The notes under the pieces are model-generated. The model did not search any database. It saw nothing but the letters and a program-made list of their open reading frames with translations, and had not been told where the DNA came from. A DNA stretch of 64,000 bases from positions 1 through 64,000 of IMG/VR virus record IMGVR_UViG_3300024966_000001; one strand, given 5' to 3'. Positions 3,102 to 18,830 of this stretch are shown here, piece by piece. Made by a program: the position numbers and the translations under genes. How positions within the stretch are numbered: the stretch's first letter is position 1; each line of letters opens with the position of its first letter. The DNA comes from a virus.

Positions 3102-3872
3102 TCAAGCATATCTACGTTTTGGTAATGTCGACCACCAGAATACCCAGCCTATTACCTTTACGCTTTTTGCCTCTTCAAAAGATAGTGTTTCATCAGGCCA
3201 CTCATCTCTGTTTTCACTTCTCAAGCGTAAAGCTCCGCCGGGCATTTTGTATAAGTACTTAACCCTTAATGAGCCATCGTGATCAATAGCGTACATTTCG
3301 CCATCAATAATATTAGTTGTTCCTTTGTCGATCCCTATGGCAGTGCCGTTGTGTAATTTTGGTTCCATGCTGTTTCCAGAAATAGTTGCACACGCGGCAT
3401 TGCACTCAAGAACAGCCTGGTTCTTAAGCGTTGACTTCGCAAATCTTAATTTCATCCCACAATTTTCTATAACTTCGTGGCGACTTGATCCGGCAGCCAA
3501 CTCAACTTCTCTAAAATATGGCAGCGCCACTTCATCGTCTCTCAGCGGCGTGCTGCCATCCCATAATTCTAATTCACCGAGCACATAATTAGGGGTAGGG
3601 CTTGGTAGTTCTATTCGAGTTGTCGTGCTATCGATGTAGTCAGCCAAGTCTTCGTGCATTACATCCATCCATCCAATATCTTTACCGACAGCCTGTTCTA
3701 TTTTTCGTGCCAGCGCTAAGCCAATATTCCTTTTGCTTTTCTCGCTAAAAATTTGGCTCATATATGAAGGGTCTGTGCCTATTTTTTCGGCAAACTTACC
3801 CTTATCAAGCCCAGATTCTTTTCTAAGGATCTCGTAATTTATTTTTCTGATTTCGTTAATTGTCAGTTCCAT
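3102..3872 (-). CDS. CI-type repressor, XRE HTH plus S24 LexA-like peptidase
   Basis: A 256-residue prophage repressor. Residues about 14-70 form an XRE helix-turn-helix (KFAEKIGTDPSYMSQIF). Residues about 115-245 are an S24 self-cleavage domain with the scissile AG at 127-128, the nucleophile Ser168 in GNSM and the general base Lys205 in RVKYL. It should bind the TTAGCA...GCTAAA operators on both sides of its gene, shut off cro and the 55-aa gene, and be destroyed during SOS through RecA. It diverges from cro across a 95-bp control region. Confidence 0.92.
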   Translation of the reverse strand: MELTINEIRKINYEILRKESGLDKGKFAEKIGTDPSYMSQIFSEKSKRNIGLALARKIEQAVGKDIGWMDVMHEDLADYIDSTTTRIELPSPTPNYVLGELELWDGSTPLRDDEVALPYFREVELAAGSSRHEVIENCGMKLRFAKSTLKNQAVLECNAACATISGNSMEPKLHNGTAIGIDKGTTNIIDGEMYAIDHDGSLRVKYLYKMPGGALRLRSENRDEWPDETLSFEEAKSVKVIGWVFWWSTLPKRRYA

Positions 3873-4859: not shown

Positions 4860-5368
4860 AGGCCGGTAGCTTAACCGGTAAAAGCACCCCGCTCATAACG
4901 GGGAGCTTATTTGCAACAAAAATAAATATGAAGCACTGTAATCGCTGCGACACAACTTTATCTAAAGATAGTTTTGGAAAGAATATATCTAACAGTGACG
5001 GACTCCAATCGCAATGCAAGCAATGCAGAAAACATGTAAATAATGAGCAATATGCTAATAATCCTAATCGCAGAGCAAACATAAGAAGAAACCAAGATAA
5101 ATTTTATAAAGAATCAAGAGATTACGTTAATAGCATTAAGGATGTTAGTTCATGTGCTGTATGTGGAGAAAATGCTAATTGCGCATTGGATTTTCATCAT
5201 TTTGATAATAATAAAGAATTTGGAGTTTCTGAGAATATAGGTAGATTCAGTTTAACCAGGTTAAAAGTAGAAATATCAAAATGCATAATTCTGTGCGCAA
5301 ATTGCCATAGGAAAGTACATGCAAGATTACTGATTTTATAGTCGGTTCGACACCGACACGGCCTACCA
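4860..5368 (+). tRNA. tRNA with anticodon CAU, interrupted in its variable region by an HNH gene
   Basis: The two halves make a full cloverleaf. Acceptor 4860-4866 pairs with 5358-5364 in six of seven pairs (position 7-66 is G-A). The D arm is GCTT/AAGC, the anticodon stem CCCCG/CGGGG has loop CTCATAA (anticodon CAT 4894-4896), and the T arm is GTCGG-TTCGACA-CCGAC at 5341-5357. A73 and an encoded CCA (5366-5368) follow. About 432 bases (4909-5340) separate position 48 from position 49. The anticodon allows Met or, with lysidine, Ile2. The gene is inactive unless the insert is removed or the halves assemble in trans. Confidence 0.8.
4928..5341 (+). CDS. HNH homing-type endonuclease inserted in a tRNA gene
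   Basis: A 137-residue protein with an N-terminal zinc knuckle pair (CNRCD near 4-8, CKQC near 30-33) and a C-terminal HNH nuclease: CAVC, the DFHHFD catalytic histidines near 91-96 and CANCHRKVH near the end. Such H-N-H proteins cut DNA at homing sites and carry their genes into uninterrupted alleles. The stop codon TAG ends on the first base of the tRNA T stem. Only about 19 bases of the insert lie outside the ORF. It is visibly richer in A and T than its neighbours, a sign of recent arrival. Confidence 0.85.
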   Translation: MKHCNRCDTTLSKDSFGKNISNSDGLQSQCKQCRKHVNNEQYANNPNRRANIRRNQDKFYKESRDYVNSIKDVSSCAVCGENANCALDFHHFDNNKEFGVSENIGRFSLTRLKVEISKCIILCANCHRKVHARLLIL

Positions 5369-5427: not shown

Positions 5428-5455
5428 GCCCCGAGCAATCGGCGGGGCTTTTTTT
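5428..5455 (+). terminator. Terminator after the tRNA
   Basis: GCCCCG (5428-5433) pairs with CGGGGC (5443-5448), followed by seven T. It ends the transcript carrying the tRNA/HNH unit and separates it from the downstream YdaT-like gene. Confidence 0.85.
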
Positions 5456-6870: not shown

Positions 6871-6930
6871 ACCCGATACCGGCCTAGTCTGGCCAGACAA
6901 AAAGCGTTTCCTTCGTGCGCTGGCCGGTAT
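6871..6930. repeat. Perfect 10-bp inverted repeat with a 40-base loop
   Basis: GATACCGGCC (6871-6880) is matched by GGCCGGTATC (6921-6930). Together with a repeated TGATTAACAGTT-like sequence near 6811 and 6852, it fills the gap before the nuclease-like gene. It could be a leader hairpin, but no T run follows. Confidence 0.5.
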
Positions 6931-6968
6931 CAACTTTTAACGAAGACTAACGAAAGGAAAGAATAATC

Positions 6969-18592: not shown

Positions 18593-18830
18593 CGGAGTCT
18601 CGAAATCTCCTCTCAAAGCGGAACCCGCACCCGAAAGACCATGCGGTATTTTTTTGCCTTGCATTTTTCAGATTATCGATCAATGTTGGGGATAGGCTAA
18701 TACAAGACCCGAAAGGGAAATAGGCCTGACTGTCTTTGAGCAGTTTCGAGTCCCCGACACCAAACGGAATAGGGGGTATATGGATAATCCACATACCCCT
18801 TTAATAATCGAAAATAACTCAAGGAACCAT
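18593..18830 (+). ncRNA. C4-like antirepressor leader RNA, copy 3
   Basis: CCGCACCCGAAAGACCATGCGG, a hairpin like that of copy 2, is followed by TATTTTTTT. Then come GGGGATAGGC, the core AATACAAGACC, a CCCGAAAGGG hairpin, ATAGGCCTGACTGTC, and GAGTCCCC closing the long-range pair with GGGGA. It ends with the AAGGAACC ribosome site of the antirepressor. The shared order of hairpin, T run and core with copy 2 shows a conserved regulatory RNA. Confidence 0.65.

What the first reader, a model, noticed from the sequence alone, without database searches (positions are those of the whole stretch)
4860..5368. tRNA(CAU) gene split in its variable region by a free-standing HNH gene
All parts of a tRNA with encoded CCA are present, but about 432 bases holding an HNH nuclease ORF separate the anticodon arm from the T arm. 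The HNH stop codon (TAG) ends on the first base of the T stem. Known tRNA introns in bacteria are group I elements in or near the anticodon loop and need a folded core of a couple of hundred bases. Here only about 19 bases lie outside the ORF, so a normal intron has no room unless its core overlaps the coding region. This may be a new type of tRNA-targeting homing insertion, a self-removing element, or a broken tRNA used as a target site.
Basis: partly seen in the sequence, partly recalled or inferred. Interest (0 to 1): 0.78.

Follow-up and report, generated by a model that had tools for sequence, protein, structure and literature searches.

The report
Homing endonuclease gene splitting phage tRNA
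A small selfish DNA-cutting gene has landed inside a phage's own tRNA gene and cut it in two; related genes have done the same to tRNA genes in unrelated phages, apparently wrecking the tRNA rather than being spliced out.

Summary
Window 4860-4908 and 5341-5368 are the two parts of one tRNA(CAU) gene, separated by 432 bp that hold one HNH ORF (4928-5341) plus a 19-nt leader. Joined halves are called as a tRNA; 0 of 3000 random joins are.

It is not an intron. There is no group I match and no unusual fold. The 137-aa ORF is a full-length member of a phage HNH family (PHROG 2255) and leaves no room for a ribozyme. A family member that does sit beside a group I intron was picked up by the same search.

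The family lives in phage tRNA arrays: 33 of 64 non-redundant members lie within 100 nt of a tRNA. Two further lineages show insertion into a tRNA gene. In Klebsiella Mydoviruses the HNH gene replaces nt ~1-50 of an intact tRNA-Lys(CUU) gene (occupied against empty alleles). In P1-like phages it splits a chimeric tRNA-Thr with three broken stem pairs. In all three the downstream junction lies at the start of the T stem.

Best reading: a free-standing tRNA-targeting homing endonuclease gene inserted at the variable region/T-stem border and inactivated the tRNA. Cleavage, homing and loss of the tRNA are inferred, not shown.

The parts
4860..4908 (+). 5' part of the tRNA(CAU) gene, nt 1-48 (acceptor 5' strand, D arm, anticodon arm, variable region AGCTT)
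   Evidence: direct reading; ARAGORN on joined halves; partial Rfam tRNA match 22.6 bits
4894..4896 (+). anticodon CAU
   Evidence: direct reading; ARAGORN on joined halves
4909..5340 (+). insert, 432 bp, AT-rich; 5' boundary inferred, could lie elsewhere in the variable region
   Evidence: tRNA geometry and T48 in intact relatives; G+C 0.312
4928..5341 (+). HNH endonuclease ORF, 137 aa, free-standing homing-endonuclease type; stop TAG uses G49 of the tRNA
   Evidence: PHROG 2255 E 1.3e-31; full-length alignment with 21 relatives; model pLDDT 93.5
5341..5368 (+). 3' part of the tRNA(CAU) gene, nt 49-76 (T arm, acceptor 3' strand, A73, CCA)
   Evidence: direct reading; ARAGORN on joined halves
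5428..5455 (+). hairpin followed by a T run, probable terminator after the tRNA
   Evidence: read by eye; not in the strict terminator list, whose limit on loop length it exceeds

Best explanation
A free-standing HNH homing endonuclease gene of a family that specialises in phage tRNA arrays has inserted into this phage's tRNA(CAU) gene at the border of the variable region and the T stem. The likely route is cleavage or nicking of an intact tRNA gene near its conserved T arm, repair from a donor that carries the HNH gene flanked by tRNA sequence, and copying of the HNH gene plus some flanking tRNA sequence into the target. Insertion destroys the recognition site and so protects the carrier. It also splits the tRNA gene, which is then probably dead and decays; it is not spliced. 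Shown: the split, the full-length HNH ORF, the family's association with tRNA genes, empty and occupied alleles in Mydovirus and P1-like phages, and the T-stem location of the 3' junction. Inferred: cleavage site, homing, loss of tRNA function.
For: Full-length HNH family member. 33 of 64 non-redundant relatives lie within 100 nt of a tRNA; 17 overlap a downstream tRNA, 9 of them by exactly 10 nt so that T8-A9-G10 gives the stop codon. Mydovirus occupied/empty alleles: the HNH gene replaces tRNA-Lys nt ~1-50 and homology resumes at nt 51. P1-like clade: HNH inside the variable region of a chimeric tRNA-Thr, with whole tRNAs at that locus in other P1-like records. Same 3' junction in the three lineages. 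No group I intron, with a positive control in L014, and no fold signal in the insert. P1-clade split tRNA has 3 of 17 pairs broken; 10 of 366 intact phage tRNAs have that many. Tree: all three in one supported tRNA-array clade, with the P1-clade gene nested among genes that precede whole tRNAs.
Against: In the window itself the tRNA halves are almost perfect, which would also fit continued use of the tRNA. No empty allele of the window's own phage was found; the nearest syntenic locus lacks a tRNA. Endonuclease activity and target were not tested. Most characterised free-standing homing enzymes cut far from their insertion site (PMC2988022), whereas this model places the target close by.
Confidence: 0.83

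Rival explanations
1. The insert is a new kind of intron, or a group I intron whose core overlaps the ORF, and is spliced out to give a working tRNA.
For: Window halves pair at 16 of 17 positions checked, and the joined tRNA is complete with CCA.
Against: No Rfam intron at E up to 10 and no RF00028 match in the record although the search finds one beside relative L014. Insert fold z -0.46. The ORF fills 413 of 432 bp and is conserved as protein along its length. In the P1 clade joining the halves leaves three bad pairs, and in Mydovirus the 5' part of the tRNA is missing.
Confidence: 0.04
2. [quoted passage not shown]
For: Nearly perfect halves. Precedent for function of genes split by a free-standing homing gene: nrdA with mobE (PMC2988022).
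Against: Two related lineages show decay or deletion of the tRNA. No RtcB or RNA_ligase family in the phage record; the T4 Rnl1 search was uninformative because its controls did not ring. Nothing in the sequence points to a nuclease that would release the halves.
Confidence: 0.08
3. The two halves are relics of two different tRNA genes that once flanked the HNH gene in an array, fused by deletions.
For: Many relatives lie between two whole tRNA genes, and G7.A66 does not pair.
Against: The acceptor strands pair at 6 of 7 positions, and an intact CAU tRNA from another phage (L095) resembles both halves, including TAGCTTAAC in the 5' part and the whole ACGGCCTACCA end in the 3' part.
Confidence: 0.05

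Closest known systems
SegB of T4-like phages (free-standing homing endonuclease associated with tRNA genes; PMC13096335, PMC2988022)
   Same: Free-standing homing gene found next to phage tRNA genes and moving tRNA-bearing DNA by recombination
   Different: SegB is a GIY-YIG enzyme located between tRNA genes; here an HNH enzyme lies inside one tRNA gene and splits it
mobE inserted in nrdA of phage Aeh1, and mobA in the T4 topoisomerase gene (PMC2988022)
   Same: Free-standing HNH homing gene inserted within a gene, splitting it
   Different: Those split protein genes, and the Aeh1 nrdA pieces were shown to work; here an RNA gene is split and function is untested and doubtful
HNH endonucleases of Felix O1 and related phages (PMC3185647)
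   Same: Felix O1-like phages carry relatives of this HNH family in their tRNA regions
   Different: In those fetched the HNH gene lies between whole tRNA genes or overlaps the start of one; no split tRNA was seen
Group I introns in bacterial tRNA genes (own knowledge)
   Same: Interrupt a tRNA gene and may carry a homing endonuclease gene
   Different: Sit in or near the anticodon loop and have a ribozyme core; neither applies here

Membership tests
Free-standing HNH homing endonuclease gene | HNH nuclease domain with conserved catalytic and zinc-binding residues | tested here: met
   PHROG 2255 E 1.3e-31; invariant HH, CxxC pairs and CANCHRKVH in the alignment. The Pfam HNH match is weak, below cut-off.
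Free-standing HNH homing endonuclease gene | not carried by an intron or intein | tested here: met
   no intron by Rfam or RF00028, with a positive control; the ORF is not in a protein gene
Free-standing HNH homing endonuclease gene | occupied and empty alleles at the same site | tested here: met
   met for relatives: Mydovirus tRNA-Lys and the P1-like tRNA locus. Not found for the window's own phage.
Free-standing HNH homing endonuclease gene | cuts or nicks the empty allele and is inherited preferentially | not testable with these tools
   needs enzyme assay and mixed infection
Group I intron in a tRNA gene | group I catalytic core | tested here: not met
Group I intron in a tRNA gene | insertion in or near the anticodon loop | tested here: not met
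   the insertion lies in the variable region or at its border with the T stem
Group I intron in a tRNA gene | spliced product | not testable with these tools
   needs RNA
SegB | GIY-YIG nuclease domain | tested here: not met
   named PHROG matches are HNH endonuclease or endonuclease VII families; no GIY-YIG family listed

The most novel reading that the evidence does not exclude
The split tRNA(CAU) still works, either as two RNA pieces or after removal of the insert by an unknown route, so that a homing gene lives inside a functional bacterial tRNA gene without an intron.
Probability: 0.09. Interest if true: 0.9.

Novelty: new variant of a known kind. Interest (0 to 1): 0.52.

Why it matters
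It shows homing genes entering tRNA genes themselves, not only the gaps between them, with the downstream junction in a stretch that almost all tRNA genes share. It suggests one reason why phage tRNA arrays gain, lose and remodel tRNAs, gives a natural source of chimeric and broken phage tRNA genes, and offers a testable target for the enzyme: the T arm. Such split genes are missed by ARAGORN and mis-called by annotation pipelines.

Tried and rejected
Group I intron overlapping the ORF: no match and no fold signal. Chance tRNA-like halves: 0 of 3000 random joins. The shared G7.A66 mismatch as a functional sign: it occurs in both split tRNAs and in none of 366 intact ones, but the intact tRNA-Thr relatives and L095 carry T7:A66, so it is better read as a chimera or decay scar. 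L027 joined call: no split tRNA by eye, and no tRNA match in its record. L089/L090 pattern hits: HNH gene without tRNA. Foldseek against PDB gave no significant match, and the PDB sequence search only a 5-methylcytosine-specific restriction enzyme at E 1.4. A search of the window DNA against phage records found nothing. No paper found in the held library describes an HNH gene inside a tRNA gene; most subscription journals and preprints are not held, so this does not prove that it is unreported.

Full report
Observation. The window is part of a 73,380-bp virus record. Reading 4860-5368 directly gives nt 1-48 of a tRNA with anticodon CAU at 4860-4908, then 432 bp, then nt 49-76 with encoded CCA at 5341-5368. 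ARAGORN sees nothing in the intact window but calls tRNA-Met(cat) for nearly all join points tested; random joins of the same geometry give 0 of 3000. The stems are intact but for G7.A66. CAU could be methionine or lysidine-type isoleucine; the C4-G69 and C5-G68 pairs resemble the latter (own knowledge, untested).

The insert. It is one ORF of 137 aa plus a 19-nt leader. The protein matches PHROG 2255 (HNH endonuclease) at E 1.3e-31. It aligns end to end with 21 relatives that share HH...CANCHRKVH and is modelled with high confidence (pLDDT 93.5), though no solved structure matches well. The insert is AT-rich against the phage (0.312 against 0.469), as expected of a newcomer. Its fold is no better than shuffles (z -0.46). 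Rfam gives no intron. A group I search finds none in the window record or in a P1-clade record, but finds one (E 3e-10) just upstream of the HNH gene of relative L014. So the method can see an intron next to this family, and here there is none.

The family and tRNA genes. Relatives are common in phages: 321 INPHARED records and 69 IMG/VR loci. In a survey of 64 non-redundant loci, 33 lie within 100 nt of a tRNA and 17 overlap the 5' end of an intact downstream tRNA. In nine of those the overlap is exactly 10 nt, so that nt 8-10 of the tRNA supply the stop codon. Examples are KIL1 tRNA-Thr, NINP13076 tRNA-Lys and Kenya-K36 tRNA-Ile.

Other tRNA genes invaded. (a) In Klebsiella Mydoviruses, phages VLCpiM5b and KB57 have an intact tRNA-Lys(CUU) gene at a locus where K54lambda1.1.1 and VLCpiM5a have the HNH gene. 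Downstream homology resumes exactly at tRNA nt 51 and upstream homology stops near nt 5, so about 50 nt of the tRNA are gone and its T arm follows the HNH stop. (b) In a small clade of P1-like phage-plasmids of E. coli, E. fergusonii and Salmonella, the HNH gene (41% identical to the window's) splits a tRNA-Thr(UGU) in its variable region. Its 5' end GATGGTGTAGCTCAG is that of the resident P1 tRNA gene, while the anticodon arm and 3' part are Thr-like (compare KpF5 and Potts1). This is what co-conversion from a tRNA-Thr donor using tRNA homology would leave. P1, SJ46 and other P1-like records have whole tRNAs there. Of 555 E. coli records that match the query, only four hold most of the split form. 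The split tRNA-Thr has lost pairs 7:66, 51:63 and 27:43.

Common anatomy. In the three lineages the 3' end of the cassette meets the tRNA at the start of the T stem (48/49 in the window, about 48/49 in the P1 clade, 50/51 in Mydovirus). The tree puts all three in one supported clade of tRNA-array members. The P1-clade gene joins HNH genes of phages ENT3 and BPS15Q2, which precede whole tRNA genes. That favours repeated events over one inherited insertion, though the position of the window gene inside the clade is unresolved.

Mechanism. The simplest account is a tRNA-targeting homing gene that recognises the conserved T-arm region, is copied into tRNA genes by repair using flanking tRNA homology, and either ends where a tRNA begins (harmless) or interrupts a tRNA (harmful to it). 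The window looks like a recent or well-kept interrupted case, the P1 clade an older one, and the Mydovirus locus a deleted one. This ordering is inference. The nearest known parallels are SegB, a tRNA-region homing enzyme of another nuclease family (PMC13096335; PMC2988022), and mobE/mobA, HNH genes that split protein genes (PMC2988022). The Aeh1 nrdA pieces still work, which is why a functional tRNA in pieces is kept as a minor rival.

Limits. No empty allele of the window's own phage was found; the best syntenic locus lacks a tRNA. Cleavage and tRNA function are untested. The flank comparisons rest on a few independent lineages. The literature check covers only the held open-access library.

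Noticed in passing
window 6877-6943 and 18685-18766: Rfam int-alpA RNA and sRNA-Xcc1 matches above gathering score; the second lies just after the terminase large subunit gene.
   Followed up: no
P1-like tRNA locus: L078 951-1104, L086 850-1098, L087 462-613, L085 350-849: The tRNA content between conserved flanks varies strongly among P1-like phages: Asn/Thr, Arg/Tyr/Thr, Arg/Thr, or one HNH-split Thr.
   Followed up: partly
L085 353-451: The RefSeq annotation calls a 99-nt tRNA-Thr that covers the 5' half of the split gene plus part of the HNH gene, probably a spurious call.
   Followed up: no
L014 2660-2895 (G003:C1:6932-7167, minus strand): A relative of the HNH gene lies just downstream of a group I intron match at E 3e-10, so the same family is also found with introns.
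   Followed up: partly
L019 about 2870-2960 and 3410-3500: Two similar tRNA-like sequences flank an HNH gene and are not called by ARAGORN; possible degenerate duplicate.
   Followed up: no
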